Source: Bacteroidales bacterium
GTDB lineage: Bacteria; Bacteroidota; Bacteroidia; Bacteroidales; Bacteroidaceae
Direction of reading: 5' to 3'
Assembly: GCA_022772475.1 (NCBI GenBank)
Contig: JALEZQ010000014.1
Coordinates: 72,004 to 104,586, forward strand
DNA: 32,583 bases
Below, in pieces: positions 8,007 through 32,583 of this stretch (position 1 is the stretch's first letter; each line of letters begins with the position of its first letter). The notes below the pieces were generated by a model that was given only the letters and a program-made list of their open reading frames with translations, ran no database searches and was not told the origin of the DNA. Made by a program: the position numbers and the translations under genes.

Positions 8007-8160
8007 CATGGTACGACTAAGCTGCGCCCCCGGTGGCACGTCAATGGACATGCCACTACTAAGCTGCGCCCCGGTGGCACGTCAATGGACATGCCACTAC
8101 TAAGCTGCGCCCCGGTGCCATGTCAATGGACATGGCTCTACTAAGCTGCGCTCCCGGTGC
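7991..8160. repeat. 41/42-bp palindrome array
   Basis: Units begin at 7991, 8033, 8074, 8115 and 8157 (the last decays). Each has the core GTCaATgGAC with outer arms, then CTACTAAGCTGCGC and a CCCGG joint. The arms change as pairs: GTGGCA with TGCCAC at 8033 and 8074, but GTGCCA with TGGCtC at 8115. Confidence 0.9.
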
Positions 8161-8318
8161 CATGTCTACAGATTTCGTTTTTGTAACGTGGATACATTCT
8201 CGCTGCGAAGAGGCTACAACGCGTTTTGATGCGCGAGGGAAGCGCGAGGTGCGCGCGAGGAAAATCACGAAAGATGCGCAAAGAGGCTGTGTATGCTATG
8301 CTTATAAAGAAAAATTGC

Positions 8319-8326
8319 TAAATTTG
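8319..8326 (+). promoter_or_regulatory. -7 box upstream of the DUF4861 gene
   Basis: TAAATTTG, 72 bp before ATG 8399, in a locally AT-rich stretch. No good TTTG lies 19-21 bp upstream, so this is a partial match. Confidence 0.5.
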
Positions 8327-8398
8327 CGGCATGTTGTGAGGCGAAGCCTTTGTACGCTTCAGTCCCCGGCACTTTTCCAACGACACAAAACACTCCCG

Positions 8399-9601
8399 AT
8401 GTTAAGGCACATACTCAGACTTACCTTTCTTTCGGCCCTCGCTCTGTGGCCGTTCATGACTGCGTCGGCCGACGACGCCACAGTTGCCATCACCATCACT
8501 AACCCCACCGACTTTCAGCGACAAGAACTCGTTGAAATCGATGCCGACAAGGTGTTGCGCCTGCTTGGCGTCAAGGCCGACACGGCCATGGTGCTACAGA
8601 ACGACCTGGGGCAGGAACTGGCATATCAGATCACTTACGACCGCCGTCTGCTGGTCGATGCCGCCGTGCGTCCCAAGGGGCGTTGGGTCATCTATGCGCG
8701 GCGCGGCCGCCGTTGTGCGGTGCCTTCGGCCGTCTATGGTGCGCAGTATAAACAGCGTATGGACGACATGGCGTGGGAGAACGACCGCTGCGCCTACCGC
8801 GTCTATGGGCCGGCACTGCAGAAGAGCGGCGAGAAGTCGTTCGGCATCGACGTGTGGGTGAAGAATACCCCCGACCTCGTCGTCGATCAGCGCTACAAGG
8901 GCGAGTTTGAAGCCGTGGCCGACGCCCGGCGCTGCCGGCAGGCCGGCGACAACGACGGCGCGCGCCGTGCCCTCATTGCCAAGTCCATCCACTACGACCA
9001 CGGCAACGGCATGGATGGCTATAGCGTTGGTCCGACGCTGGGATGCGGCGCACCCGCCCTTATCGACGGCGACACGATACTCATGCCCTATTGCTATACC
9101 TCCTATCAGATACTCGACAACGGGCCGCTGCGCTTCAGCGTCCGTCTGGACTACGGCGCCAACAGCCGCGGCATCGTGGAGCACCGCATCATCAGTTTGG
9201 ACAAAGGCAGCCACTTCAACCGCATCCGCGTGTGGTACGACAACGTCCGCACGCCGCTCACCCTCTGTGCCGGCATCGTGAAGAACGGGCAGGGCACGCT
9301 CAAGACCGAAGGCCACGTCGTGGCCTATGAAGACCCCACCGACCGCCCCAAAGTGCATGGCTCGTCCGTCTATACCGCGGTATTCTTTCCCCATCATCCT
9401 CAAGCCGCTGCGGCGCTGACGCCCGACAAGCGCAACGCCGTCTGCACCATCGGCGGCTACCGCGGAGAGAAAGTGACCTACTATGCCGGTGCCGCCTGGA
9501 GCCGCTACGACGTGCCCGACTTCACCGTCTGGCAGCACGTTATCCGGCACGAGATGACCGCCATACAGCAGCCCCTCCGCGTGACCATCAGCAGGAAATA
9601 A
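8399..9601 (+). CDS. DUF4861 secreted protein
   Basis: About 400 residues. A signal peptide (LRLTFLSALALWPFMTASA) precedes the mature protein at about residue 24. The DUF4861 pattern is visible: YRVYGPAL, GIDVWVKNTPDLVV, HGNGMDGYSVGPTLGCGAP, then SYQILDNGPLRFSVRLDYG. The family is found in gut and marine Bacteroidetes beside pectin, ulvan or glycosaminoglycan enzymes; its activity is not firmly established to my knowledge. The frame is open 93 codons upstream, but these run through the repeat array and the -7 box, so ATG 8399 is chosen. It ends 38 bp before the GH88 gene, likely the same transcript. Confidence 0.82.
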   Translation: MLRHILRLTFLSALALWPFMTASADDATVAITITNPTDFQRQELVEIDADKVLRLLGVKADTAMVLQNDLGQELAYQITYDRRLLVDAAVRPKGRWVIYARRGRRCAVPSAVYGAQYKQRMDDMAWENDRCAYRVYGPALQKSGEKSFGIDVWVKNTPDLVVDQRYKGEFEAVADARRCRQAGDNDGARRALIAKSIHYDHGNGMDGYSVGPTLGCGAPALIDGDTILMPYCYTSYQILDNGPLRFSVRLDYGANSRGIVEHRIISLDKGSHFNRIRVWYDNVRTPLTLCAGIVKNGQGTLKTEGHVVAYEDPTDRPKVHGSSVYTAVFFPHHPQAAAALTPDKRNAVCTIGGYRGEKVTYYAGAAWSRYDVPDFTVWQHVIRHEMTAIQQPLRVTISRK

Positions 9602-9639
9602 TGCTTTTCTAACCATACAACACAAAACCCCAAAACACA

Positions 9640-10911
9640 ATGAAGAACAAACTCAAACTGATGCTTCTCGGCCTGGCCTTCTCCCTTACGGCAGGCGCAC
9701 AGGATGTGGCCAAGGAGAAGGCGTTTATCAAAGACAACATGACGTTTGCTGCACAGCAGTACGCCATGATGATGAAGACCCCCGCGCAGGGCAAGGACGG
9801 CAAGGCTGTGATGCCCCACACGATGCGCAAGGACGGCAAAGTGTCGAAAGGCAGCATCTACCTCTGGACCGCCGGCTTCTTCCCCGGTTCGCTGTGGTAT
9901 CTGGCCGACTATACGGGCGACAAGGCTCTGAAAGACTCGGCCCTGGTCTATACCACCTACATGGAGCCCGCCAAGACTTTCACCAGCAACCACGACATTG
10001 GTTTCATGATGTACTGCAGTTATGGCAACGCCAACCGTTTCGCTCCACAGCCCGCATACGAAGATATCCTGACCCAGTCGGCCCGCTCGCTCTGCACCCG
10101 TTTCCATGCCAATACCGGCGTCATCCAGTCGTGGAACGGTTTCCGCAGTTGGCATGGCGACAAGGTGTACAACTATCCTGTCATCATCGACAACATGATG
10201 AACCTCGAGTTGCTCTTCCATGTGGCCAAGGTCACGGGCGACGACAGCTTCCGCAAGGTGGCCGTATCGCACGCCGAGACCACGATGAAGAACCAGATCC
10301 GCAAGGACTACAGCCACTTCCACGTCGTGTACTATGACAAGGAGACCGGCGCCCCCATCAAGGGCGAGACCTCGCAGGGCTATGCGGACAACTCGTGCTG
10401 GTCGCGCGGCCAGTCGTGGGGCATCTACGGCTTCACCATGTGCTACCGCGAGACGGGCGACAAGCGCTTCCTCAAGACGGCACAGGGCATGGCCGACTTC
10501 TACCTCGACCACCCCAACCTGCCCAGCGACAAGGTGGCCCTCTGGGACTTCAACGCTTGGGAAGAAGGCTATGTGCCCGGCGTACGTTCGCGTGCAAGCA
10601 TCACGCCCATCCTTTACCGCGATGCCTCGGCAGCCGCCTGTACGGCTTCGGCCCTGCTCGAACTGAGTACCTACGTGAAGGGCAGCAAGAGCAAGAAGTA
10701 CTTTGACGGTGCCGTTCAGATTCTCCACTCGCTGGGTAGCCCTGCCTACCGCGCCAAGCTCGGCGAAAATGCCAACTTCATCCTGATGCACTCCGTTGGA
10801 GCCATCCCCCACGGCTCGGAGATTGACGTGCCTCTGACCTATGCCGACTACTACTTCATCGAAGCCCTCCACCGCTACAACCGCCTGCTTGACGGCAAAC
10901 CGCTGTTCTGA
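9640..10911 (+). CDS. GH88 unsaturated glucuronyl hydrolase
   Basis: A 423-residue secreted (alpha/alpha)6-barrel enzyme. A signal peptide ends near residue 20 (SLTAGA-QDV). The two acidic residues of the GH88 active site fit D119 in SNHDIGFMMYCSYGN and D184 in PVIIDNMMNLELL. Other GH88 landmarks are LWTAGFFPGSLWYLA, GYADNSCWSRGQSWGIYGF and DASAAACTASALLEL. GH88 hydrates the 4,5-unsaturated uronate left by polysaccharide lyases. With DUF4861 it forms a short uronate-oligosaccharide unit; no SusC/SusD or lyase is present in the window. GH105 is the alternative, but the SNHDIGF region favours GH88. Confidence 0.92.
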   Translation: MKNKLKLMLLGLAFSLTAGAQDVAKEKAFIKDNMTFAAQQYAMMMKTPAQGKDGKAVMPHTMRKDGKVSKGSIYLWTAGFFPGSLWYLADYTGDKALKDSALVYTTYMEPAKTFTSNHDIGFMMYCSYGNANRFAPQPAYEDILTQSARSLCTRFHANTGVIQSWNGFRSWHGDKVYNYPVIIDNMMNLELLFHVAKVTGDDSFRKVAVSHAETTMKNQIRKDYSHFHVVYYDKETGAPIKGETSQGYADNSCWSRGQSWGIYGFTMCYRETGDKRFLKTAQGMADFYLDHPNLPSDKVALWDFNAWEEGYVPGVRSRASITPILYRDASAAACTASALLELSTYVKGSKSKKYFDGAVQILHSLGSPAYRAKLGENANFILMHSVGAIPHGSEIDVPLTYADYYFIEALHRYNRLLDGKPLF

Positions 10912-18994: not shown

Positions 18995-19026
18995 AAACGG
19001 GAGGATTTCTTAAAATCTTCCCGTTT
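18995..19026 (+). terminator. Terminator after fmt
   Basis: A 14-bp stem: AAACGGGAGGATTT (18995-19008) with AAATCTTCCCGTTT (19013-19026), one G.U pair, 4-nt loop. The downstream T-run is weak. It abuts the promoter of the kinase gene. Confidence 0.75.
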
Positions 19027-19028
19027 GC

Positions 19029-19062
19029 TTTGCACCCCATTTCTTACTTCCTTCTACATTTG
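19029..19062 (+). promoter_or_regulatory. Promoter of the two-component operon
   Basis: TTTG (19029-19032), 22 bp, TACATTTG (19055-19062), 31 bp before ATG 19094. Good match except for a spacing one base above the usual range. Confidence 0.65.
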
Positions 19063-19093
19063 CACCATCACCATTCCTCCAGTCAACAACGCC

Positions 19094-20500
19094 ATGAAGA
19101 AATCAACGATATGGATAATCACCGGCGTGATGGGCGCCTCGCTGCTCACGCTGCTCTATCTGCAGTTCAGCTACTTCAGAAGCGTCTATGACATGCGCAA
19201 GGAGCAGTTTGACCAAGCCGTGGTGCGCAGTCTGGCCCAGACGGCACAGGACCTCGAGGTCTATGAAACGCAGTTGCGCCTGGACAACGCCCTGGGCTAT
19301 GCCGACAGCACCGGTGAGGACACCATCATGCGCAGCGCCCATCCCATTCTGCCACCCAAGGGCAGCACCCTGCGCGATACCATCAAGCACTACCTGCACC
19401 GCCAGGAAATCATCGACCAGATGCTCAGCGTGCTCTATCGCCCCTCCGACGTCCCCCTGGACCAGCGCATCGACTACAAGCGCATGGACCGCACGCTCAA
19501 GGCCCAGCTCGACCGCAACGGCATCAACCTGGTCTATCATATCCGCGTCACCACCTCTGACGGGCGCGAGATATTCCGCTGCCGCGACTATGACGAACGG
19601 GGCGAGAGCGATGCCTACAGTCAGGAACTGTTCTGCAACGACCCCCAGCCGCAGGTGGGCCTGCTCTACATCCATTTCCCCGACCAGAAGCAGTATCTCT
19701 TCTACGGCGTGCGCTTCATGATCCCCGCCATCATCTTCACGCTCGTCGTGATCATGCTCTTCTCCATAACTATCTACACCATCTTCCGCCAAAAGCGTCT
19801 GTCCGAGATTAAGAACGACTTTATCAACAACATGACGCACGAGTTCAAAACCCCCATCTCCACCATCTCGCTGGCGGCGCAGATGCTGTCGGACCCCTCG
19901 GTGGGCAAGAGCGAGGCCATGTTCAAGCACCTCAGCGGCGTCATCAGCGACGAGACCAAGCGCCTGCGCTTTCAGGTGGAGAAGGTCCTGCAGATGAGTA
20001 TGTTCGACAAGCGTGCAGCCACCTTCAAGAAGACCGAAGTGGCCATCAATGCCCTCGTGGCCGACGTGGTCAACACCTTCCGCCTCAAGGTGGAGAGCAG
20101 CGGCGGCAGCATCCGGTTCGCCCCCGATGCCGAGGACGACCAGGTCTTCGTCGATGAGATGCACTTCACCAACGTCATCTTCAACCTCATGGACAATGCC
20201 GTCAAGTACAAGCGCGACGACACGCCCCTGAGCCTGACCCTCACGACGGCCAACAAGGCCGGCAACTTCGTCCTCACCATCGCCGACAACGGCATCGGCA
20301 TACGCCGCGAGGACCTCAAGAAAATCTTTGAGCGCTTCTACCGCGTCCACACCGGCAACCGTCACGACGTCAAGGGCTTCGGTCTCGGCCTGGCCTACGT
20401 CAAGAACGTCGTCACCAATCTGGGCGGAACCATACACGCCGAGAGCGAGTATGGCAAGGGCACCACCTTTATCATCAGTTTACCCACCATTAAACGATAA
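19094..20500 (+). CDS. rprX: Sensor histidine kinase (RprX-like)
   Basis: A 468-residue inner-membrane kinase. Transmembrane helices lie at about 7-26 and 215-237, enclosing a periplasmic sensor region of about 185 residues. The phosphoacceptor is H249 in NNMTHEFKTPISTISLA. The ATPase domain has the N box (NLMDNAVKYK), DNGIGI, a FERFYRVHTGN F box and GFGLGLAYVK. The organisation and partner match the Bacteroides RprX/RprY pair. The upstream open frame covers the promoter, so MKKSTIW at 19094 is chosen. The response regulator starts 5 bp after the stop. Confidence 0.92.
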   Translation: MKKSTIWIITGVMGASLLTLLYLQFSYFRSVYDMRKEQFDQAVVRSLAQTAQDLEVYETQLRLDNALGYADSTGEDTIMRSAHPILPPKGSTLRDTIKHYLHRQEIIDQMLSVLYRPSDVPLDQRIDYKRMDRTLKAQLDRNGINLVYHIRVTTSDGREIFRCRDYDERGESDAYSQELFCNDPQPQVGLLYIHFPDQKQYLFYGVRFMIPAIIFTLVVIMLFSITIYTIFRQKRLSEIKNDFINNMTHEFKTPISTISLAAQMLSDPSVGKSEAMFKHLSGVISDETKRLRFQVEKVLQMSMFDKRAATFKKTEVAINALVADVVNTFRLKVESSGGSIRFAPDAEDDQVFVDEMHFTNVIFNLMDNAVKYKRDDTPLSLTLTTANKAGNFVLTIADNGIGIRREDLKKIFERFYRVHTGNRHDVKGFGLGLAYVKNVVTNLGGTIHAESEYGKGTTFIISLPTIKR

Positions 20501-20505
20501 CGACC

Positions 20506-21342
20506 ATGAAATTCGACAACATGAAAATCCTCCTCTGCGAAGACGACGAGAACCTCGGTATGCTGCTTCGCGAATATCTCCAGGCCAAAGGCTTTGGCAC
20601 CGTACTCTGCACCGACGGCGACGCCGGCTACCGCGCCTTCGTCAAGGAGAAGTTCGACCTCTGCGTCTTCGACGTCATGATGCCCAAGAAGGACGGCTTC
20701 AGCCTGGCCCGCGACATCCGTCAAATCAACCTCGACGTGCCTATCATCTTCCTCACCGCCAAGGTCCTGAAGGAGGACGTCCTCGAAGGCTTCAAAATTG
20801 GTGCCGACGACTACCTGACCAAGCCCTTCTCCATGGAGGAACTCACCTTCCGCATCGAGGCCATCCTGCGTCGCGTCAAGGGGAAGAAAAACCGCCTGCG
20901 CACCTTCTACCATCTCGGCATCTACACCTTCGACACGCAGAAGCAACTCCTCACCCACGGCGACGTGGCCACCAAACTGACCACCAAAGAGTGTGAACTG
21001 CTCAACCTGCTCTGCTCGCACGCCAACGAAATCCTCCAGCGCGACTACGCCCTCAAGACCATCTGGATTGACGACAACTACTTCAACGCCCGCTCGATGG
21101 ACGTCTATATCACCAAACTGCGCAAGCACCTCAAGGACGACCCCACCGTCGAGATTATCAACATCCACGGCAAGGGCTACAAACTGGTTGTGCCCAATGC
21201 CGACGAGGATGACGAGGAAGAAACCGACGCCATCGTCATCGACGGCATGCCCGAAGACGGTATGGTCGGCGGATCTGCCGCTCAAGGCGCTGTAGAGACG
21301 GCATCGCTCGTCGGCTCCGCCCCCCTGCCCGGCGAGAAGTAA
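20506..21342 (+). CDS. rprY: OmpR-type response regulator (RprY-like)
   Basis: A 278-residue cytosolic regulator. The receiver domain (about 6-120) has acidic residues EDDEN, phosphoacceptor D56 in CVFDVMMPKKDGF and K106 in YLTKPFS. A winged-helix DNA-binding domain follows (about 140-235) with KLTTKECELLNLLC, SMDVYITKLRKHL and GKGYKLVV. After the usual end, about 45 more residues form an acidic then low-complexity tail (EDDEEETD). The start at 20506 has an alternative Met at 20521. It is co-transcribed with the kinase; targets cannot be read from the sequence. Confidence 0.93.
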   Translation: MKFDNMKILLCEDDENLGMLLREYLQAKGFGTVLCTDGDAGYRAFVKEKFDLCVFDVMMPKKDGFSLARDIRQINLDVPIIFLTAKVLKEDVLEGFKIGADDYLTKPFSMEELTFRIEAILRRVKGKKNRLRTFYHLGIYTFDTQKQLLTHGDVATKLTTKECELLNLLCSHANEILQRDYALKTIWIDDNYFNARSMDVYITKLRKHLKDDPTVEIINIHGKGYKLVVPNADEDDEEETDAIVIDGMPEDGMVGGSAAQGAVETASLVGSAPLPGEK

Positions 21343-21423: not shown

Positions 21424-21558
21424 TTTCTGTCACATTTTTCTTCTGTCAGGCGCCGCAGTGTCTGCCTGTAAAGTGTGCCATGAGGCGGATGTTGTTGACC
21501 AACGTGCGGTTTCGGGCAGAAAACGTCAGCCGTTAGAAGACGAATGGGCGAAATTGCG

Positions 21559-21566
21559 TATCTTTG
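21559..21566 (+). promoter_or_regulatory. -7 box almost touching the start codon
   Basis: TATCTTTG ends 4 bp before ATG 21571. A weak TTAG lies 22 bp upstream. If functional, the mRNA would be leaderless or nearly so. Confidence 0.6.
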
Positions 21567-21570
21567 CCCC

Positions 21571-22620
21571 ATGATTCCTTCACAGAACGCGCGTTCGGAC
21601 CTGCGGACTTTTTGGCAGGCCATCCTTATATTCTTGATGCTGAGTATCGTCGTCGGCTGTTCCGACGATGATGAAGCCCCCGTGACAGCCGTTCTACGCC
21701 CGCAGGTGACGGTGCTTTTCTCGCCCAATGCGCTTGGCGACAACGGCTATAACGACCGCATATATACGGGTCTGGTGCGAGCCCGTGTCTCGCGCGACCT
21801 CAACCTCGAAATCCTCGTCCCCAACAGCAATGCCGAGGCCGACAGTATGCTCGTCGAGTGGCTCGACGCCTATACCGCCGGCACGACGCCGCGCCTTCTC
21901 GTCTTCGCCTCAGACGAATATGAGGCGCTGGCCCGCCGCTATGCCGCGCGCCTGCCGCAGACGGCGAAGGACCGCACCCTGCTCTTCGAGAGCACTGCCA
22001 CAGACCTGCCCGTCGCCACCTTTGCCATGCCCGCCTATGGCGCCTGCTACCGCGCGGGCCTCCTCACCGCGATATGGGACGAGCAGCCCCGCTGCATCAT
22101 CGTCAGTGCCAACGACTACAGCCTCTTCCTGCGCGAGGCGCGGCAGGCCTTTGCCGACGGTTTCGAGAAGGTCTGGGGCTTGCGTCCCGACAGTTGTGCG
22201 CTGGCCGACGACTTCTCTGGCTACTATATGGCCGACAGTCTGCAACGCATGGCTGAAGGGTGGAACGGCCGCTACAACCTTGTCTTCCCCATCGTCGGCG
22301 GCAGCGTCAGCGGACTGAGCAACTACCTGCTCACCAACTTCACCATCGACCTGAAGGTGGTGGGCATGGACAATTATGAAACCTACTACTCCACGCCCTT
22401 CTATGTGGTAAAGCACATCGACGACGTCGTCCGGCAATGTGTCGAGCAGTGGGCCGACGGCGCCGAACTGCCGCGCGGCGCCCGCTACGGTCTGGCCTCG
22501 GGACGTACCGAGGTGGTGGTTGAAGAACTGTGGCTCACCGACGAGCAGCGCGCCCTGGTCGGGCCTACCCTTACCGAGGCTTTACAGAAAGAAAGCGAAT
22601 ATGAACAGACTGCTCCATAA
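21571..22620 (+). CDS. BMP-like periplasmic binding lipoprotein
   Basis: A 349-residue predicted lipoprotein: signal helix AILIFLMLSIVVGC with the lipidated Cys near residue 30, then SDDDEAP. The mature part resembles the BMP/Med family of type 1 periplasmic binding proteins: VTVLFSPNALGDNGYNDRIY near the start, then FTIDLKVVGMDNY late in the fold. BMP relatives bind nucleosides; the ligand here is unknown, and no ABC permease or ATPase is adjacent, so uptake is doubtful. The frame is open nine codons upstream, but that part overlaps the -7 box. It overlaps the next gene by 20 bp, indicating translational coupling. Confidence 0.8.
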   Translation: MIPSQNARSDLRTFWQAILIFLMLSIVVGCSDDDEAPVTAVLRPQVTVLFSPNALGDNGYNDRIYTGLVRARVSRDLNLEILVPNSNAEADSMLVEWLDAYTAGTTPRLLVFASDEYEALARRYAARLPQTAKDRTLLFESTATDLPVATFAMPAYGACYRAGLLTAIWDEQPRCIIVSANDYSLFLREARQAFADGFEKVWGLRPDSCALADDFSGYYMADSLQRMAEGWNGRYNLVFPIVGGSVSGLSNYLLTNFTIDLKVVGMDNYETYYSTPFYVVKHIDDVVRQCVEQWADGAELPRGARYGLASGRTEVVVEELWLTDEQRALVGPTLTEALQKESEYEQTAP

Positions 22621-24778
22621 CCTCCTCCATATTCTCTGCGCCATCGTGGCTGCCGTGACCACCCTCGTCGCCATGGCCGCCTGTAGCGACGATGCCGCTC
22701 CTACCGCCCCCGAGGCCGACGTCCTCGAAGTCAAGGTGGCCGTGGTGCTGCCCCTGTCTGATGAGACGGGAGCACGCTGGCGCCGCGTGGCCGACCTCGT
22801 GCAGGACCACTTGGCACGCGCCCAGCAGGGGCGTGAGCGTCAGGTGCGCCTCAGTATAGAGTGGTACGACGAGACGACGAACAGCATGGCCACCCTCGGT
22901 CCGCAACTGGCCGATCGCGACGACATCGCCGCCGTCATCGGGCCGCGCTCTGCCAGCCGTGCCGACACCCTGGCCTACGCCTGCATGGTGGGCCACGTGC
23001 CCCTCTTCTTCCCTGCCATCACGTCTGAGGAGGTGGTGCGCCGCTATGCGTCCTACGGCTTCCTATGGTCCCTCACCGAGACGGACGTCACGCAGTGCGA
23101 ACTCCTCCTGCTCAAGGCTCAGGCCTCAGACCTCAAAAACATCGCCCTCTTGGCACCCGACGACCTCTACGGACGCACGTTCTACAACTGGTTCGCCTTC
23201 CAGGCCACCGAACTGGGCCTCAACCCCGTAGATGTCAAGATATACACCCCCGACAACCGCGACGCCACCATTGCCGATTTTATGCAGACCAACTGTGACG
23301 TCATGATTTGTGCCCCCGAGAGCCGGAGCGACCTTGAGGCCGTACTCCGCGCCTATAACCGGCGCTACGGCGACGAACTCTTACCGCCCGCGCTCTTTCT
23401 CACGGACGCCGCGCTGACGGCAGGCCTCCTACATATAGATAATTCAGACGTCCTCATCGAGGGACTGGCAGCCTGCCCCGATCCCACCACGGGTTTCTCC
23501 ATCTACTACGCGCAACGCTTCGACGGCGATTCGCCGCTGCCCGGCGAGGCACAGCTTTACGACGCCCTGATGCTCACCACTCTGGCGGCTGCCGACTGCC
23601 GCGCACGCGACGAAAACCCCTACAGCGGCGACTACCTCACCGCCGCCCTGCGCCGCCTCACCGTCCCCGAAAGCAATCGCGCAGCCTCCTTGACATGGAC
23701 CGAGGCGGGCATGGCGGCGGCCCTCGACCGCATCGAGCGCGCCGACTACCGTCCGCTGACGGGCGCATCGGGAAGCCTCGCCTTTGATGAGGACAACTAC
23801 ACCAGCATCCTCCAGACCATCTACACCGAATGGTTCCAAGTTGGTGGTAAACTCTATACCACGGGCTATCGCAGCAGTGCGGGCAACCACCGCGTGTCAT
23901 CGTCCGTGGCAGCATGGAACTGGAAGAAGACCATCGAGCAGAGCATTGAAGACAAGCCCACGGGCATCGTCTATCCCGCCCGCCAAACCACGTGGGCCGT
24001 CCTCGTCGCCCCGGCCACGGGGTGGGAAAACTACCGCTTCCAGGCCAACGTCCTCGACATGTACCAACTGCTCCGCAGCCGGGGCTTTGACGACGACCAC
24101 ATCATCCTCATCGCCGAGGACGACCTGGCCAACAACCCGCGTAATCCCAACCCCGGCACCGTCTATACCGAAGCATGGGGGCAGGACGTGTACGCCGACG
24201 TCCACATCGACTATGCCCCCACCTCCCTCACACCCGACGATTTGGCCGACATCCTCACGGGTCAGGCCGGCTTCCGCCTGCCCGAGGTGGTGCATGCCGG
24301 CCCGCAGGACAACGTCCTCGTCTTCTGGTGCGGCCATGGCGTCGAGGGGCGGCTCGTTTGGACCGACGACAGCGGATCGCAGGGCTCACGCGGCCTCACC
24401 CCGCAGCGTCTGCGTGCCGCGCTCGACCGCATGGCCAAGGCCAACGCCTACCGCAAGATGCTCTGGATTGTCGAAGCCTGCCATGCCGGCAGCGTCACCG
24501 AGGCCGTCGAGGGCTATCCCGGCGTGATGGCCATCGCCTCGTCCGGTGCCCAAGAGTCGTCCAAGGCCACCGGGTGGGACAAGACCTACGGCACCTACAT
24601 GAGCAACGTCTTCGTCCGCACCCTCATGCGTGAACTCCGCCGCAGTCCCGCCATCGACTTCCGCACGCTCTACTACGACCTGAGCCGCGGCACCATGGCC
24701 TCGCACATTCAGATGAACAATGCCGCCCTCTTCGACAACCTCTACCTCAGCACCATCGAAGAGTTCATCACGCCGTAG
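22601..24778 (+). CDS. Lipoprotein fusing a type 1 periplasmic binding domain to a C13 (legumain-like) cysteine peptidase
   Basis: A 725-residue predicted lipoprotein (MAAC, Cys28, then SDD). Residues about 45-420 look like a branched-chain amino-acid-type binding protein: VAVVLPLSDETGARW, DDIAAVIGPRSAS, NIALLAPDDLYGRTFYNW. Residues about 460-700 match peptidase family C13: GWENYRFQAN (N477, R479), DDLANNPRNPNPGTVY, GPQDNVLVFWCGHG with H579, and AYRKMLWIVEACHAGSV with E625 and catalytic C627. These residues match the active site and S1 pocket of legumain. The activity could be Asn/Asp-specific cleavage or transpeptidation; the sequence does not say which. The start at 22601 overlaps the BMP-like gene by 20 bp. 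No permease is adjacent, so the binding domain is likely a sensor or substrate module. Confidence 0.85.
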   Translation: MNRLLHNLLHILCAIVAAVTTLVAMAACSDDAAPTAPEADVLEVKVAVVLPLSDETGARWRRVADLVQDHLARAQQGRERQVRLSIEWYDETTNSMATLGPQLADRDDIAAVIGPRSASRADTLAYACMVGHVPLFFPAITSEEVVRRYASYGFLWSLTETDVTQCELLLLKAQASDLKNIALLAPDDLYGRTFYNWFAFQATELGLNPVDVKIYTPDNRDATIADFMQTNCDVMICAPESRSDLEAVLRAYNRRYGDELLPPALFLTDAALTAGLLHIDNSDVLIEGLAACPDPTTGFSIYYAQRFDGDSPLPGEAQLYDALMLTTLAAADCRARDENPYSGDYLTAALRRLTVPESNRAASLTWTEAGMAAALDRIERADYRPLTGASGSLAFDEDNYTSILQTIYTEWFQVGGKLYTTGYRSSAGNHRVSSSVAAWNWKKTIEQSIEDKPTGIVYPARQTTWAVLVAPATGWENYRFQANVLDMYQLLRSRGFDDDHIILIAEDDLANNPRNPNPGTVYTEAWGQDVYADVHIDYAPTSLTPDDLADILTGQAGFRLPEVVHAGPQDNVLVFWCGHGVEGRLVWTDDSGSQGSRGLTPQRLRAALDRMAKANAYRKMLWIVEACHAGSVTEAVEGYPGVMAIASSGAQESSKATGWDKTYGTYMSNVFVRTLMRELRRSPAIDFRTLYYDLSRGTMASHIQMNNAALFDNLYLSTIEEFITP

Positions 24779-25051: not shown

Positions 25052-27511
25052 ATGAGCAGTTCCTTTCAAAAACTCCTGGCCTTCGCGCCGGCGTTGTGCA
25101 TGTTGCTGTGCGGCTGCCACGACGACGACGTGACGGCTTCAGGCGAAGGTGGCGGGGGCGGCACAGCCCTCCACACCTATGTCTATGATGTGCATGTGCC
25201 CAACGCCGACGGCACCCGCACGGTATATATCGACAGCGTCAGCGGCAATCTCACTTCCACCTCGCCCCTGCCCGCATGGTGCAAGGTGGAGCAGACCGGC
25301 ACGTACAACGGCCGGCCCGTCATCAGCCTGTCCTACACCGGCAGCAAGCCCGAAGAGATACGCAAGGGCACGAATGTCACCCTCTATTTCTCCGACCGGA
25401 ATGCCGCCGTGCTCTCCCTCTATCAGGCCTATCTCTATGTGGCGTCCGACAACGCCGGCGAAGGCAACGAAGCCTTCCTCACCGACTGGGAAAACTGCCA
25501 GAGCGTCCAAATTCTCTCGGGCGTACAGGGCGTCCTGCCCGTGAGCAAGGAAGTGCCCACGCCCTGGGCCACGGCCGGCAGCATCAGTTCGATACCCTCG
25601 GCCATCGCCTACGATGTGAAGAAAGCAGACGGCTGGGAAATGGCCTTCTCCCTGCTCAACACCCGTCCCTACGAGAGTGCCAACTACTTCGGTCTGTACA
25701 ACCGCAACCTGGGCATACTCCGCGTCTTCTACTACGTGGAGAACGCCTCCGGCACCGGCTCGCACAACTGCTTTGAGGTTATCATGGGTTCGGAAGAGCA
25801 GAGCGACGACCACCATCCCTACTACAACGCCCTGCAGTATGGCATACCCCTTAGCCACAAGGATATAGAGCCCGACTGCGGCAACATCACCATCACCGAC
25901 GTGCCAAACCCGTCGAAGCCCGGCACCTTCACCCTCTACTGCACGCCCCACAGCAACTCCACCTCCACCACGCTCAAGGTGGGCTGGACGGCCTTCGACA
26001 TCGACATGTCGGCCTACCACCCCGATGGCGGCATGACACAGGGCGTGAGCAACAACGGCCTCAGCATCAACTGCTACGCCTGGAAGAACGACGCCGTCAG
26101 CCTCACGGGCAGCATCAAGGCCACCATTGCCGGCGAGTATGACGAGCCCTATTCCACCACCACCACCGCCAATGGCATCGGCACCGTGGTCAACGTGCTC
26201 AAGAAGAGCGGCGGCCTGTTCAGCGCCCTCCAGACCGTAGCCAAGAAGGTGGACGGCTATCTCAAGGATGCCAAGGAGGACGACGGCAAGGCCGCCGACA
26301 AGAAGGGAGACGAGAAGTCCGACAGCGCCGGTGGCACGAAAGCCGCCACCAAGGACATGAGCGTACCGCCCCTGCTGCGCCGCAATACACGTTCGCTGGC
26401 CGCTGCCGTGACCTGCGTGCAGACCGCCATCAACTTCGGCACGATGATCTACGACAAGTTCTTCGACGAGAGCACCACCGAATATACGCGCGGCAAGATA
26501 GACATGTCGCTCACGGGCACCCTGTCGCTTCACGGCAGCATCACGTCCGCCGCCGCCACCAATATCCCCAGCGTGCAGATAGGCAAGTCCACCATGCTCC
26601 AGGCCTCGAAGAACATGGGCAAGGGCGTCTGGGCCCTGACCGACGACCCCGTGGTCTATATCGTCGGCGACCACTGCCTGACCACGACCGATTGGGACAT
26701 CAACCTCGTCCGCGAGCAAAACCACACCTACAATGCCGGTGCCGATGCCGCCGACTATGGCCTGCGCATGATCGCCTTCCTCGACCCCACGTCGCTCGGC
26801 GTCAGCATCAACAAGGACATCTTCCCCGACGTCAAGGAGGTGCACCTCAGCGCCTACTGCGGCATTTACCCCAAGAAGGCGCCGGGCCATACCGCCACCT
26901 TCCGCCGCGCCCTGAGCCTGCCCATACCCGAGGCCGTGGACATTGCCGACGCCTCCAGATTGCCCGTGGGCGAGGAGACGTCCGTGACCGATGGCACCAT
27001 GGCCATGACTGCCCACTATGCCGAGACCGACGCCTTTGCCTCGTCCCTCTATGACGAAAACAGGGGTTCGGCCACGATGGTCGAGGTCAAGGACAACGGC
27101 CGCGCCTATGCCTACTACGGCTACTGCGACAACGCCGCCTCCGAGAGCGCCTTCATGCCCGATCCTCAGATTTTCTTCCCCGTGAGCCAGGACAACGTGC
27201 GCCTCTATGACGACTATGTGCCCGACTTCGTGGTCTGCGTCACCCTCTCGTTCCGCTCCGGCAACCGCGACTACCTGTTCAGCCGCCGCTTCGTGCCCGC
27301 CGTGCGCGTCATCAAGGGCAGTGAGGTAGTGGATGCCCGCCAGCGTCTGACCTCCTTCGCCCGGCGCTGCACCAACAGCCTGCCCTATGCCCGCATGAGC
27401 AACGATGCCGCCGTGCCCGTCTATGACCTCGAGGGCGCTGCACAAGTGGAGAAGTCGCTCCAGATACTCAACTTCATCCTTTCCGACCCCGGACTGGGCA
27501 ATGAAGACTGA
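25052..27511 (+). CDS. Large lipoprotein of unknown function
   Basis: 819 residues. Signal peptide with lipobox LLCGC (Cys22), then HDDDV and a Gly-rich linker. Residues about 45-130 have a BACON-like feel (SPLPAWCKVEQTG around W76, then ISLSYTG and NVTLYFSDRNAAVLSLYQ), which is tentative. A charged Lys/Asp-rich low-complexity linker lies at about 400-445. The rest is rich in beta strands with no family I recognise. The gene has its own promoter and is followed after 72 bp by another lipoprotein. It comes straight after the C13 peptidase gene, so a shared envelope role is possible but unproven. Confidence 0.85.
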   Translation: MSSSFQKLLAFAPALCMLLCGCHDDDVTASGEGGGGGTALHTYVYDVHVPNADGTRTVYIDSVSGNLTSTSPLPAWCKVEQTGTYNGRPVISLSYTGSKPEEIRKGTNVTLYFSDRNAAVLSLYQAYLYVASDNAGEGNEAFLTDWENCQSVQILSGVQGVLPVSKEVPTPWATAGSISSIPSAIAYDVKKADGWEMAFSLLNTRPYESANYFGLYNRNLGILRVFYYVENASGTGSHNCFEVIMGSEEQSDDHHPYYNALQYGIPLSHKDIEPDCGNITITDVPNPSKPGTFTLYCTPHSNSTSTTLKVGWTAFDIDMSAYHPDGGMTQGVSNNGLSINCYAWKNDAVSLTGSIKATIAGEYDEPYSTTTTANGIGTVVNVLKKSGGLFSALQTVAKKVDGYLKDAKEDDGKAADKKGDEKSDSAGGTKAATKDMSVPPLLRRNTRSLAAAVTCVQTAINFGTMIYDKFFDESTTEYTRGKIDMSLTGTLSLHGSITSAAATNIPSVQIGKSTMLQASKNMGKGVWALTDDPVVYIVGDHCLTTTDWDINLVREQNHTYNAGADAADYGLRMIAFLDPTSLGVSINKDIFPDVKEVHLSAYCGIYPKKAPGHTATFRRALSLPIPEAVDIADASRLPVGEETSVTDGTMAMTAHYAETDAFASSLYDENRGSATMVEVKDNGRAYAYYGYCDNAASESAFMPDPQIFFPVSQDNVRLYDDYVPDFVVCVTLSFRSGNRDYLFSRRFVPAVRVIKGSEVVDARQRLTSFARRCTNSLPYARMSNDAAVPVYDLEGAAQVEKSLQILNFILSDPGLGNED

Positions 27512-27583: not shown

Positions 27584-28534
27584 ATGAAACGATTCCTCCA
27601 TTACCTTCCCGCCGCCGCCACCCTGTGTGCCATGCTGGCCGCCATGCCCCTCTTCACCGCGTGCGACGATGACGACGACCCCGCACCGCTGCCCGAGCAG
27701 CCTCAGGTCCACGCTGACCAACTGGCCGACTTCGCCGAAAACATCTACCGCACCGACGCCGAAGGCTTGCTCACCGAGCGCATCAACGGTCTGCCTCTGC
27801 CCGAACTCGAGGCCGACACCACCGTGCTCTACATCGGCATCACCACCGCCGACACCGCCAAGACCATCTTCAAAAACTGGCTGCCACAGGACGGCAACAT
27901 CGTCGAAAACGGCATGACCGTCATCTTCACCCCCACCGACACCCTGGGCAACGCCTGCGGCACCATCACCTTCACCCCCGCCACTGATGCCGAAGGCCGG
28001 CTGCTGGCCCGCGTCACCTTCGCCGGCGGCGCTGCCCTGAAGTACGCCCGCGAGATACGCTTCATCACCGCCGAAGCCTTCCCCCGCAACGACGAATCGG
28101 CCTATAAGGTAGGCGATGTCGTTGTCGATGAGACGCGCACCAACCTTGCAGGCCATACCGAAGACATACGTTATCTATGTGTGCGCAAGGCGCAGAGCGG
28201 GCAGAGCGGTCTGCTCATCGGCTTCAGCGGCAAGAAAGAAACAACGGCCTTGGCCTGCCTCGAGTATGCCGCCAATAAGGCCGATGCACGCGAAGCCGCC
28301 AAAATTATCAGCGCCAATTACGACTACTTCGCTTCGGCCTTCAGCAAACGCGGAGATAACCGCCTCAAGGACGAGCCCGGAAACTACTACTACTTCGACC
28401 ACTATGTCTATGCCTTGTTCTACTTTGGCGCCTATGCCATCAACTTCAAGGACAAAAGCGAGAAGTACTATAACTACGGCAGTACAGCACTCTATCACGT
28501 CTATTCCAAAACCTTCGGCATGCGCGTGCGCTGA
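27584..28534 (+). CDS. Lipoprotein of unknown function
   Basis: 316 residues. Signal peptide ends LFTAC (Cys27) followed by five Asp, an acidic sequence often seen after the lipidated Cys in exported Bacteroidetes lipoproteins. I recognise no domain. The N-terminal half contains regular beta-like stretches (DTTVLYIGITTADTAKTIF); the C-terminal half is richer in helix and aromatic residues (NYYYFDHYVYALFYFGAYAI). It shares a transcript with the 819-residue lipoprotein and ends at a strong terminator. Confidence 0.85.
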   Translation: MKRFLHYLPAAATLCAMLAAMPLFTACDDDDDPAPLPEQPQVHADQLADFAENIYRTDAEGLLTERINGLPLPELEADTTVLYIGITTADTAKTIFKNWLPQDGNIVENGMTVIFTPTDTLGNACGTITFTPATDAEGRLLARVTFAGGAALKYAREIRFITAEAFPRNDESAYKVGDVVVDETRTNLAGHTEDIRYLCVRKAQSGQSGLLIGFSGKKETTALACLEYAANKADAREAAKIISANYDYFASAFSKRGDNRLKDEPGNYYYFDHYVYALFYFGAYAINFKDKSEKYYNYGSTALYHVYSKTFGMRVR

Positions 28535-29018: not shown

Positions 29019-29051
29019 AATAAATACGTACAAAAAATTCAAGGCCCTTGG

Positions 29052-29183
29052 CAATACGATTGCCAGCCGCGGGTAATACGATTGCCAGCCGCGGGTAATG
29101 CGATTGCCAGCCGCGGGCAATGCGATTGCCAGCCGCAGGTAATAAAAGTGCCAGCCGCAGGTACTCAAAGTGCCAGCCGCGGG
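29052..29183. repeat. Six 22-bp tandem units
   Basis: Exact 22-bp period, units starting at 29052, 29074, 29096, 29118, 29140 and 29162. The constant part is GCCAGCCGCrGG; the variable part reads AATaCGAT, AATgCGAT, AATAAAAG or ACTCAAAG. Several junctions form perfect hairpins such as GGCAATgCGATTGCC. Confidence 0.92.
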
Positions 29184-29226
29184 GTGTGTCAAAATGCTCA
29201 CAAGCGTTGAAATTGCGGCGGTGCGC

Positions 29227-29461: not shown

Positions 29462-29521
29462 TACTAGCGGGGCACTGCGGCAGATTTGTGTTGATACTGC
29501 GGCGGTGCGCCCAGCAGCGGG

Positions 29522-29611
29522 GAATCAAATTCCCAGCCGCTGGGAATCGAATTCCCAGCCCTTGGGAATCGTGTTCCCAGCCGCTGGGAATCGGTGTCCC
29601 AAGGGCTGTGG
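29522..29611. repeat. Four 22-bp tandem units, related to the array at 29052
   Basis: Units begin at 29522, 29544, 29566 and 29588 (the last is degenerate). The constant part is TCCCAGCCgcTGGGAATC. Aligned base by base with the first array, 16 of 22 positions agree. Hairpins GGGAATcgaATTCCC and CCCAGCcGCTGGG are mutually exclusive pairings of the same strand. Confidence 0.9.
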
Positions 29612-29912: not shown

Positions 29913-32583
29913 ATGCATCGTATCTTACATCGGGTCGCTAAACTGTGCTTAGCGCTGATTTGCGCTGTGCTTTCTATGAGCACAATAACTGCCACTGCGC
30001 AGACGCAGACCGTCAAGGACAAATACTGGTCCTATCCCACTGAAAAACCCGCCAACCCCTTCGACGGCGGTGACGGCACGGAAAGCAATCCCTACCGCAT
30101 ACGCACCGCTCAGCAGCTGATGAACTTCGCCTGGATGGTCAACGATGGCGAGGAGTATGAGGGCAAGTACTTCCTCATGACGGACGACATCGTGCTTAAC
30201 GAGAACGTCATCAACGCCGACGGCACGTTCAACAGCACCGGCTCGTTCAAAGACTGCATCGGCATAGGCCACTACAACACTTTCGTCGATGACGATTTCG
30301 GCGGCATCTTCGATGGCGGCGGCCACACCATCTACGGCTTCTACAGAAATATCAAAAAGGATGAAAAAGAGCACTACACAGCGGCGCTTTTCTATAGTTT
30401 GGACAACGCCATCGTGCAGAATCTCAACATAAGCCACAGCTTTATCTACAATTACCAAGCCAACATAGCCGATGGCACGGGCTACATCGCAGGCTCGGCC
30501 TACAAGTCCACCATTGCCAACTGTCATGTCACGAAGAGCATTATTGAATCGTGTGGATACGGTACAAGAGGTCATGGGAAATATAATAGATTTTTCAGTG
30601 TAGGTGGTATTGCCGGAATTATTGAAAAGAGTACCGTCAAAGATTGCTCGTTTTCGGGCAATATCAATGTCGGCCCCAGTAGTATCATAGAGAAAACTTA
30701 TGTCAGTGCAGGCGGTATCGTAGGCTCCATGGAAGACAATTATGACAACACCATAGCCAACTGTCTCACCGAAGGGAACATCAAATATAGTTGTACATAC
30801 CAGGTAAATCAAGAGTCTATCGGTGGCATTGTCGGTTTTGCCGATAAGAACTTTCGCATCTCCGGCTGTTGCAATAAGATGAACCTTTACTCAGTTGAGG
30901 CGGAAGGAGGACATCTCTGTATGGGAGGCATATTGGGTTTACTCGAATGTGACGGCCACAGCTATATTATCGAGCGCTGCGTAAACTTTGGCGACATCTA
31001 TTGGGGAACCAAGGGAAAAGACTACACCACTCATTGGACTAAACTTTTCGGTGGAATAGGAACACTAAGACCCAACTCCATGACGACCGCTGGCGACCTC
31101 TGTCTTACAGACTGTGCCAACTATGGCAGCATCCATGTGCTGTACGATAAGGTTACCATTAGTAATGTAAAGGACAATGACGAGAAAGCGCTCGATGACC
31201 ATACATTGACAGCGGGCTGCATAGCCATACACGGAACTTTTGGCATGCACACGCGTACTTATTTCACACGCTGCATCTCCGTAGCCGACAAACATGAACT
31301 GAATACAGATACGGACCTTAAACTCCGCTTCGCGCCCATCATGGGTTATCTCCTCCGCGACCGCTTAGAAGACGACGAGCCGGACATCCAGACCATCGAC
31401 GACTGCTACTACTATACCGACGAATCGACGTGCCGACTGCATCAGCCCACCCATCTGAAGGACGATGTGGTTGCGCCCCATTCCCGTGACAAGAGTGACT
31501 TCTGCAGAACCCAGCCGTGGTTGGCATCGCCATTTAATGCGTGGCGGCCGTTGGCTGAGGGCGAGAGCGACACATGGACAGGCTACAGCGTGCCCCTCAT
31601 CAGGGGGCTGCGCGTGCAGGGCTACGAAGGCCATGGTAAACCTGAAGAACCCTACCTTATCTATACGGAGGACGATCTGGCCAACCTCTCCCAGTTCTTA
31701 GAGAGCAACCTCAACGCCGATTTCCGCCTGATGAACGACCTCTACATGGCCGACAAACCGGCGGTAGTAAGCATCAAGGAACTACCGTTGAGTTACAGGG
31801 GCACCTTCGACGGCAACGGCCACTGCATCGACGGCCTGCGCGTGACGGGACATGCCCTCTTCGAAAAACTCTGCGGCACGGTCAAAAACCTTACGCTCAC
31901 CAACTTCCGCGGCAACGAGACGGCCAACTACAATACGTCTATTGCCTCATCCCTCTACGGCACGATAGAAAACTGCGCCGTTTATGGCACAATCTCCGCC
32001 TGCGGGGATATTGATGATGAAAAAGTGGAGGTTTCGGGCATTGCCGGCCTCGTGAGCAACGACGGTTTGACCTTTGTGGGACACATCAAGAACTGTGTGT
32101 TCAAGGGCACGTTCAAGGTGTCGCCGCTCCTAAACGGCAAAACGGTGGGAAACGTCACCAAAAGGTTGCGCTACGACGGCATCTCCAACTACCTCAACTG
32201 TGCCAAAGGCTCCGGCAGCAGCGTCACGGGCTGCTACGCCTCCTATACGGTAGAAGGGGTCGATGACGCCGGTTTCACAAGTGTCTCCACAGCCGGTGTG
32301 AGCGACAATACCAACTACTATGGCGTGATGGAAAACAACTACTTCGTCTGCCCGCAGACTCCCGAAGCATACATAAAGAATCCCGGCGTGTTCAGAGCCG
32401 AGAGCGAAGCCGCCATCACCCCCGCCATGCTCGGCGATACCAAAGGCACGGTGTGGATAAAGGGCGCCTATCGCCTCATCAACAAAAACAACCGCTACCT
32501 CACCGTCACCGACCCCGCCGGACAGACCACCTACCTCGACCTCTGCCCCGACGATGCCTGGACGCCGAACAAGGTCTATAACC
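29913..32583 (+). CDS. Large secreted GLUG-type surface protein (C-terminus beyond window)
   Basis: An open frame of 890 codons from ATG 29913 to the window end. A Sec signal peptide (ALICAVLSMSTITATAQ, cut near residue 31) starts it. The mature part begins with the pattern NPFDGGDGTESNPYRIRTAQ, usual in Bacteroidetes GLUG/beta-helix surface proteins. Two similar modules (about 55-150 and 588-680) contain F-G-G-x-F-D-G-x-G-H-x-I-x-G. Glycine motifs of GLUG type recur: VGGIAG (~230), AGGIVG (~266), IGGIVG (~303), MGGILG (~337). Probably an adhesin or surface-exposed protein; the C-terminus, which would show the anchoring or secretion signal, is missing. The middle (30540-31330) uses more A/T-ending codons than its surroundings. 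Confidence 0.85.
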   Translation, partial: MHRILHRVAKLCLALICAVLSMSTITATAQTQTVKDKYWSYPTEKPANPFDGGDGTESNPYRIRTAQQLMNFAWMVNDGEEYEGKYFLMTDDIVLNENVINADGTFNSTGSFKDCIGIGHYNTFVDDDFGGIFDGGGHTIYGFYRNIKKDEKEHYTAALFYSLDNAIVQNLNISHSFIYNYQANIADGTGYIAGSAYKSTIANCHVTKSIIESCGYGTRGHGKYNRFFSVGGIAGIIEKSTVKDCSFSGNINVGPSSIIEKTYVSAGGIVGSMEDNYDNTIANCLTEGNIKYSCTYQVNQESIGGIVGFADKNFRISGCCNKMNLYSVEAEGGHLCMGGILGLLECDGHSYIIERCVNFGDIYWGTKGKDYTTHWTKLFGGIGTLRPNSMTTAGDLCLTDCANYGSIHVLYDKVTISNVKDNDEKALDDHTLTAGCIAIHGTFGMHTRTYFTRCISVADKHELNTDTDLKLRFAPIMGYLLRDRLEDDEPDIQTIDDCYYYTDESTCRLHQPTHLKDDVVAPHSRDKSDFCRTQPWLASPFNAWRPLAEGESDTWTGYSVPLIRGLRVQGYEGHGKPEEPYLIYTEDDLANLSQFLESNLNADFRLMNDLYMADKPAVVSIKELPLSYRGTFDGNGHCIDGLRVTGHALFEKLCGTVKNLTLTNFRGNETANYNTSIASSLYGTIENCAVYGTISACGDIDDEKVEVSGIAGLVSNDGLTFVGHIKNCVFKGTFKVSPLLNGKTVGNVTKRLRYDGISNYLNCAKGSGSSVTGCYASYTVEGVDDAGFTSVSTAGVSDNTNYYGVMENNYFVCPQTPEAYIKNPGVFRAESEAAITPAMLGDTKGTVWIKGAYRLINKNNRYLTVTDPAGQTTYLDLCPDDAWTPNKVYN

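What the first reader, a model, noticed from the sequence alone, without database searches (positions are those of the whole stretch)
22601..24778. Legumain/GPI8-type C13 peptidase fused to a periplasmic ligand-binding domain on a lipoprotein
Seen: a lipobox, a branched-chain amino-acid-type binding domain, then a C13 domain with N477, R479, H579, E625 and C627 in the positions expected for legumain (GPQDNVLVFWCGHG and IVEACHAGSV). Known: legumain cleaves after Asn/Asp and can ligate peptides; GPI8 is a transamidase. Inference: ligand binding in the envelope may gate proteolysis or attachment of a protein. I do not know of a described bacterial system of this design.
Basis: partly seen in the sequence, partly recalled or inferred. 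Interest (0 to 1): 0.82.

Follow-up and report, generated by a model that had tools for sequence, protein, structure and literature searches.

The report
Surface sensor-protease beside perforin-like proteins
A gut bacterium carries a predicted cell-surface protein that joins a small-molecule sensor to a legumain-type protein-cutting enzyme; related operons often also encode perforin-like or other surface proteins that bear a conserved candidate cutting site, which suggests a signal-controlled switch for surface proteins, still untested at the bench.

Summary
Window 22601-24778 (+) encodes a 725-aa lipoprotein with a binding domain (PF13458, 32.9 bits, just over cut-off) and a C13 peptidase domain (PF01650, 163.7 bits). 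The AlphaFold2 model (pLDDT 88.7) matches human legumain at TMt 0.92. It is a conserved family: C13 above 100 bits in 63 of 399 family genomes, 73 of 76 matches in frames of 682-851 aa; His and Cys kept in 40 of 41 and 82 of 82. A PnrA/BMP-type lipoprotein gene sits directly upstream in 73 of 80 named loci. In fusion-bearing genomes 41 of 51 MACPF (perforin) matches lie within 15 kb. The window's partner (25052-27511) belongs to a family whose 11 full-length copies all lie beside a fusion. Large MACPFs (17 of 19) and this family (9 of 11) carry Asn exactly nine residues after a BACON Gln; 0 of 20 other BACON proteins do. Best reading: a surface, probably ligand-gated, legumain-type protease cutting co-encoded lipoproteins after that Asn. 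Cutting, gating and outcome are inferred. Many operons (91 of 124) show neither partner type.

The parts
22601..24778 (+). Fusion lipoprotein, 725 aa: signal peptide and lipobox, binding domain, C13 peptidase domain
   Evidence: AlphaFold2 pLDDT 88.7, pTM 0.82
22730..23665 (+). Binding domain, residues 44-355 (PF13458; LIV/branched-chain amino-acid binding protein type)
   Evidence: profile of 17 relatives hits 3td9 and 4gnr in the PDB
23990..24709 (+). C13 peptidase domain, residues 464-703
   Evidence: PF01650 7.7e-48; human legumain 7fqh_A TMt 0.92, rmsd 1.8
24335..24337 (+). Codon of catalytic His579
   Evidence: kept in 40 of 41 and 82 of 82 aligned
24479..24481 (+). Codon of catalytic Cys627
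   Evidence: kept in 40 of 41 and 82 of 82 aligned
21544..22620 (+). BMP/PnrA-type binding lipoprotein, 358 aa, gene overlaps the fusion gene by 20 nt
   Evidence: the window protein itself has no Pfam match, but its family of 21 does in 12 members (PF02608) and the family profile hits Lbp 7x0r at 5.7e-19
25052..27511 (+). Partner lipoprotein c5, 819 aa: BACON-like N-terminal part, then a core of unknown fold
   Evidence: model pLDDT only 64.8; no Pfam, NCBIfam or PDB sequence match
25451..25453 (+). Codon of Asn134 of c5, candidate cleavage site (Asn134-Ala135), nine residues after Gln125
   Evidence: inferred, not tested
27584..28534 (+). Partner lipoprotein c3, 316 aa, family recurrent in these operons
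   Evidence: no Pfam, NCBIfam or PDB match

Best explanation
A surface sensor-protease made of two proteins. The BMP-type lipoprotein and the binding domain of the fusion are displayed on the outer membrane and sense small ligands; the ligand state controls the fused legumain-type peptidase; the peptidase cuts co-encoded surface lipoproteins after an Asn in the linker behind their membrane-proximal BACON domain. That frees or arms the distal part: a MACPF pore-former in about a fifth to a quarter of loci, the c5 protein in others, including this window. Shown by computation: the fusion, the complete active site, the overlapping gene pair, the co-localisation and the Asn at fixed spacing. Inferred: surface exposure, the cut and its specificity, gating by ligand, and the outcome (killing, shedding or other).
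For: Active site conserved; legumain fold. BMP-type gene directly upstream in 21 of 26, 34 of 45 and 73 of 80 (these sets overlap in part), 30 of 34 overlaps being 11-50 nt. MACPF: 41 of 51 matches in fusion-bearing genomes within 15 kb; genome table 24/39/14/322. c5: the 11 copies with the BACON-like part lie 0.09-4.3 kb from a fusion, while core relatives in 11 further genomes have main matches that start at profile position 120 or later, and 8 of 8 fetched ones have no match to the BACON region. Asn at Gln+9: MACPF 17 of 19, c5 9 of 11, control 0 of 20; fresh MACPFs 7 of 9 in the column, 6 of 9 at exactly +9. Next residue Gly/Ala/Ser in 16 of 17. Precedent: Bacteroidales surface C11 proteases activate CDCL and BcpT toxins (PMC11169675, PMC9308784, passages).
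Against: No assay. 64 of 124 operons have other partners and 27 hold only one or two genes, so MACPF or c5 cannot be the only substrates. By a looser rule the control is weaker: 11 of 21 control BACON proteins have some Asn within 12 residues after BACON, against 19 of 19 and 11 of 11 within 14. Smaller MACPFs of the same loci lack the site or carry an Arg motif instead. S1 residue Asp231 of legumain is mostly Asn here (34 of 41), so strict Asn preference is not assured. 14 fusion-negative genomes also have MACPF. Relatives are not independent, so p-values are guides.
Confidence: 0.5

Rival explanations
1. Nutrient helper: the two binding lipoproteins capture peptides, nucleosides or similar at the surface and the peptidase trims host or dietary proteins; neighbours are ordinary surface lipoproteins that happen to be co-expressed.
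For: Both binding families are known mostly as transport-linked proteins (general knowledge; PDB names). Most operons lack MACPF and c5 (91 of 124).
Against: No named neighbour cluster looks like a transporter, though most are unnamed and no dedicated search was made. The Asn at fixed spacing in two partner families and the exclusive placement of BACON-bearing c5 beside fusions are unexplained by it.
Confidence: 0.2
2. The linker Asn is structural, for example part of an acidic metal-binding or capping turn after BACON, and the protease has other substrates.
For: The linker is acid-rich and 4 of 17 fit D-x-[DN]-x-N. Another Asn inside BACON is equally conserved, 18 of 19, so conservation alone does not prove a cut site.
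Against: Acidic positions vary while this Asn does not; both payload families share the spacing and 0 of 20 controls do.
Confidence: 0.2
3. Transamidase: the C13 domain joins the new C-terminus of a partner to an acceptor, like GPI8 or plant asparaginyl ligases, rather than hydrolysing.
For: GPI8 and peptide ligases are among the PDB matches; partners are many lipoproteins.
Against: Mammalian legumain scores best; the candidate site lies near the N-terminal anchor, so the N-terminal BACON stub, not the distal part, would be joined; no acceptor is known.
Confidence: 0.08

Closest known systems
Legumain / asparaginyl endopeptidase (MEROPS C13, PF01650)
   Same: Fold, catalytic His and Cys, S1 arginine (R479), best PDB matches
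   Different: Fused to an N-terminal binding domain on a lipoprotein; ends about 20 residues after the C13 match, so no room for the C-terminal LSAM regulatory domain of legumain (PMC4357240, passages)
GPI8/PIG-K transamidase subunit
   Same: Same C13 fold; 7wld_K TMt 0.70
   Different: Lower score than legumain; no GPI system is known in bacteria (general knowledge)
Fragipain and doripain C11 surface proteases that activate BFT, BcpT and CDCL
   Same: Clan CD cysteine proteases on surface lipoproteins that act on co-resident toxins (PMC11169675, PMC9308784, passages)
   Different: The fusion has no C11 match; predicted Asn instead of Arg at the cut; carries a binding domain and overlaps a binding-protein gene
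BSAP and other Bacteroidales MACPF lipoproteins
   Same: Partners in many fusion loci are MACPF lipoproteins, some with BACON (PMC12853789 passages)
   Different: The listings give no occurrence of legumain in PMC12853789 or PMC4999547; the window's own genome has no MACPF match

Membership tests
Peptidase C13 (PF01650) | Profile match over the curated cut-off | tested here: met
   163.7 bits against 22.8
Peptidase C13 (PF01650) | Catalytic His and Cys | tested here: met
   H579 and C627 in place, kept in 40 of 41 and 82 of 82 aligned copies
Peptidase C13 (PF01650) | Legumain catalytic fold | tested here: met
   Predicted model, Foldseek TMt 0.92 to 7fqh_A; prediction, not a solved structure
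Legumain proper | S1 pocket Arg44, His45, Ser216, Asp231 | tested here: inconclusive
   Equivalents by the alignment: R479 41 of 41; H45 position is Phe in the window and His in 35 of 41; S654 41 of 41; Asp231 position is Asn in 34 and Asp in 4 of 41
Legumain proper | C-terminal activation peptide and LSAM domain | tested here: not met
   Protein ends at 725, 22 residues after the C13 match
Legumain proper | Cleavage after Asn | not testable with these tools
   Needs an assay
GPI8 transamidase | Partner subunits and GPI acceptor | not tested
   No search for them was made
Peptidase C11 (fragipain type) | PF03415 match | tested here: not met
   Not among Pfam matches of the fusion up to E 1; the genome has a separate C11 gene
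Periplasmic binding protein PF13458 | Profile match over the curated cut-off | tested here: met
   32.9 against 31.7 bits, marginal in the window; 31 of 41 relatives at 1e-3, most of them cut to a partial stretch
BSAP-type MACPF toxin locus | MACPF gene in the locus | tested here: not met
   None in the window genome; met in other fusion loci, 21 of 76 within 15 kb

The most novel reading that the evidence does not exclude
A new class of bacterial surface switch: two extracellular ligand sensors drive a legumain-type protease that releases or arms several co-encoded pore-forming or other lipoproteins at a fixed Asn site, with different payload families plugged in behind the same BACON-plus-Asn cassette. 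This would be like caspase-gasdermin or complement logic, but outside the cell and gated by a small molecule.
Probability: 0.35. Interest if true: 0.92.

Novelty: new variant of a known kind. Interest (0 to 1): 0.78.

Why it matters
If true, gut Bacteroidales decide when to deploy pore-forming and other surface proteins by sensing chemicals outside the cell and cutting with a legumain-type enzyme. That would give bacterial C13 peptidases a job, suggest what several families of unnamed surface lipoproteins are for, and offer an Asn-directed surface protease. Named carriers include Paraprevotella xylaniphila YIT 11841 and Phocaeicola sartorii JCM 17136, so it can be tested; of these two my profiles found MACPF genes near the fusion only in the first.

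Tried and rejected
The first scan of genome contigs with the single protein found nothing; the scan with the alignment found 373 relatives, of which the best 80 were kept, so the 80 are the closest, not a random sample. Weaker C13 matches (below 100 bits) were left out of fusion counts; only one of them, L030, was looked at. The c5 model was too uncertain (pLDDT 64.8) and its PDB search had no match at 1e-3. c3 and c5 got no name from Pfam, NCBIfam or the PDB. A metal-binding reading of the Asn was considered and kept as a rival. Origin of the C13 domain by transfer from eukaryotes was not tested.

Rows dropped before counts: control BACON set 10 of 30 loci (9 proteins end right after BACON, 1 has no Gln); large MACPFs 5 of 24 as over 70% identical to another; A4 held 20 of the 21 proteins of its two clusters; L125 gave no fusion under my gene caller. 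The 19 large MACPFs include some from fusion-bearing genomes where MACPF and fusion lie on different contigs (L143, L147). MACPF in 19 of 80 named loci includes 4 loci that also have c5 and may be BACON-only matches. The c5 profile search looked only at fusion-bearing genomes; one search repeated it on all 399.

Full report
Observation. The ORF 22601-24778 (+) is 725 aa with all five named residues in place. Pfam finds C13 over residues 464-703 (7.7e-48) and a binding domain over 44-355, the latter only just over its cut-off. phmmer against the PDB gives mammalian legumain first (2e-32), then plant legumains and GPI8. The AlphaFold2 model from 41 sequences has pLDDT 88.7 and pTM 0.82; Foldseek matches its C13 half to human legumain at TMt 0.92, rmsd 1.8. 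A profile of the binding half hits branched-chain amino-acid binding proteins (best 4.2e-8). The His-Cys distance was not measured.

Conservation. Among 399 genomes of the family 71 have a C13 match at 1e-10; 76 matches in 63 genomes exceed 100 bits and 73 of the 76 lie in open frames of 682-851 aa. I checked the fused architecture by alignment for 41 proteins, not for all 76. In the order 9 of 393 genomes match, the window's included, two of them weakly. All 41 aligned proteins carry C13 and 31 of 41 reach 1e-3 for PF13458, although most were cut to a partial stretch. R479 is kept in 41 of 41, H579 and C627 in 40 of 41; the exception, L069, has both changed. In 80 named loci 83 fusion genes were found and 82 of 82 that could be aligned there keep His and Cys. 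The C13 half is more like the window (mean 42.5% identity) than the binding half (31.1%). Carriers include Paraprevotella, Phocaeicola, Prevotella and many Bacteroidales MAGs; some MAGs are labelled Treponema, Fibrobacter or Oscillospiraceae, where binning errors are not excluded.

Operon. The gene before the fusion encodes a BMP/PnrA-type lipoprotein. It is directly upstream on the same strand in 21 of 26, 34 of 45 with two at contig edges and 73 of 80 cases; these sets overlap. In 30 of 34 cases the genes overlap by 11-50 nt, which suggests coupled translation; in the window it is 20 nt. The window protein itself has no Pfam match; 12 of 21 family members match PF02608 and the family profile hits Lbp and TmpC. 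After the lipobox Cys, 62 of the 80 fusions (of 83) in which I could place it have at least two acidic residues within six, like the export signal SDDDD proposed for Bacteroides fragilis (PMC5080379, passages). Surface exposure is likely but inferred.

Partners. One neighbour family is MACPF: 19 of 20 members match PF01823 and 10 of 20 BACON; PDB matches include bacterial MACPF proteins, complement and perforin. In the 399 genomes 66 MACPF matches occur in 38 genomes; of the 51 in fusion-bearing genomes 41 lie within 15 kb of a fusion, 8 on other contigs and 2 far away; 15 lie in 14 fusion-negative genomes. Twenty-one of 76 fusion matches have a MACPF within 15 kb. Co-occurrence by genome is 24, 39, 14, 322 (p 1.6e-12, not corrected for kinship). 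The window genome has no MACPF match. Its partner is c5: in fusion-bearing genomes the 11 full-length copies sit 0.09-4.3 kb from a fusion, and none of these 11 loci has MACPF; one of the 11, G163, has a stop in its frame. To remove the sampling bias I searched all 399 genomes: only the same 11 cover the BACON-like N-terminus, while core relatives in 11 further genomes have main matches starting at position 120 or later; one of these, G398, has a fusion on another contig. Eight of these were fetched and 8 of 8 have no match to the BACON region. So the same core exists elsewhere without this N-terminal cassette.

Candidate site. Nineteen non-redundant large MACPFs (690-870 aa) share an Asn in the linker between BACON and MACPF in 18 of 19 by alignment, the other having Asp; 17 of 19 have it exactly nine residues after the last BACON Gln. 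c5 has the same spacing in 9 of 11, N134-A135 in the window. In 20 usable BACON proteins from a 41-genome survey the count is 0. Against this: by a loose rule 11 of 21 controls have some Asn within 12 residues, compared with 19 of 19 and 11 of 11 within 14, and another Asn inside BACON is equally conserved. In nine fresh large MACPFs the Asn is in the column in 7 of 9, exactly at +9 in 6 of 9, and a few residues off in the other two. The linker is otherwise variable and acidic, and the next residue is Gly, Ala or Ser in 16 of 17. This fits a legumain P1 site (Asn specificity: PMC4357240, passages). Sequences are related, so p-values (3e-9 and 3e-6) are guides.

Mechanism. The best reading is a surface sensor-protease that cuts its co-encoded lipoproteins at this Asn. 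Bacteroidales use surface clan CD proteases in this way: C11 enzymes activate CDCL pore-formers after TR and BcpT after LTR (PMC11169675, PMC9308784, passages). The smaller MACPFs (520-690 aa or about 1180) of these loci mostly carry a [TS]R motif near the N-terminus (13 of 17), as do 6 of 13 control MACPFs, 2 of 19 large ones in their linker, 0 of 9 and 0 of 7 in two other size classes; the window genome has a C11 protease. A second protease may thus act on a second subunit; that is speculation.

Limits. No assay exists. Of 124 operons, 23 have MACPF, 10 c5, 64 other partners and 27 only one or two genes (duplicates included); the shared function may be broader than pore-formers. Ligands are unknown. 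Seven paper searches gave no description of a bacterial legumain with a binding domain or beside MACPF genes; papers under subscription are not held.

Verdict. The finding is real, conserved and wider than first noticed. I rate it a new variant of a known kind: the enzyme family and the use of surface proteases on toxins are known; the sensor fusion, the overlapping gene pair and the Asn cassette were, as far as searched, not described.

Noticed in passing
MACPF genes of fusion loci (L074-L160) and controls L129, L131, L132, L134, L135, L142: A [TS]R[ASTGN] motif near the N-terminus in 13 of 17 smaller MACPFs of fusion loci and 6 of 13 control MACPFs, resembling the TR sites cut by C11 proteases in CDCLs; possible general activation site of Bacteroidales MACPF proteins.
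   Followed up: partly
L069 (same gene as in L084), genome G675: A fusion copy with both catalytic residues changed (His to Asn, Cys to Ser) in a genome that also has an intact copy (L062): a likely inactive paralogue.
   Followed up: no
L030:7372-10077: A 901-aa protein in G053 with a weaker C13 match (66.6 bits) beside a row of leucine-rich-looking repeat proteins; a different architecture, not counted as fusion.
   Followed up: no
19025-21342: Histidine kinase and response regulator genes just before the BMP-type gene on the same strand; not a recurrent neighbour in the other loci that I listed.
   Followed up: no
29028-29203 and 29498-29607: Tandem repeats of a 22-nt unit (spacing 22) in the gap after the operon, followed by other short repeats.
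   Followed up: no
29913-32583: Large secreted protein with a GLUG motif that runs off the window.
   Followed up: no
8120-10911: DUF4861 protein followed by a GH88-family protein, a possible polysaccharide-use pair.
   Followed up: no
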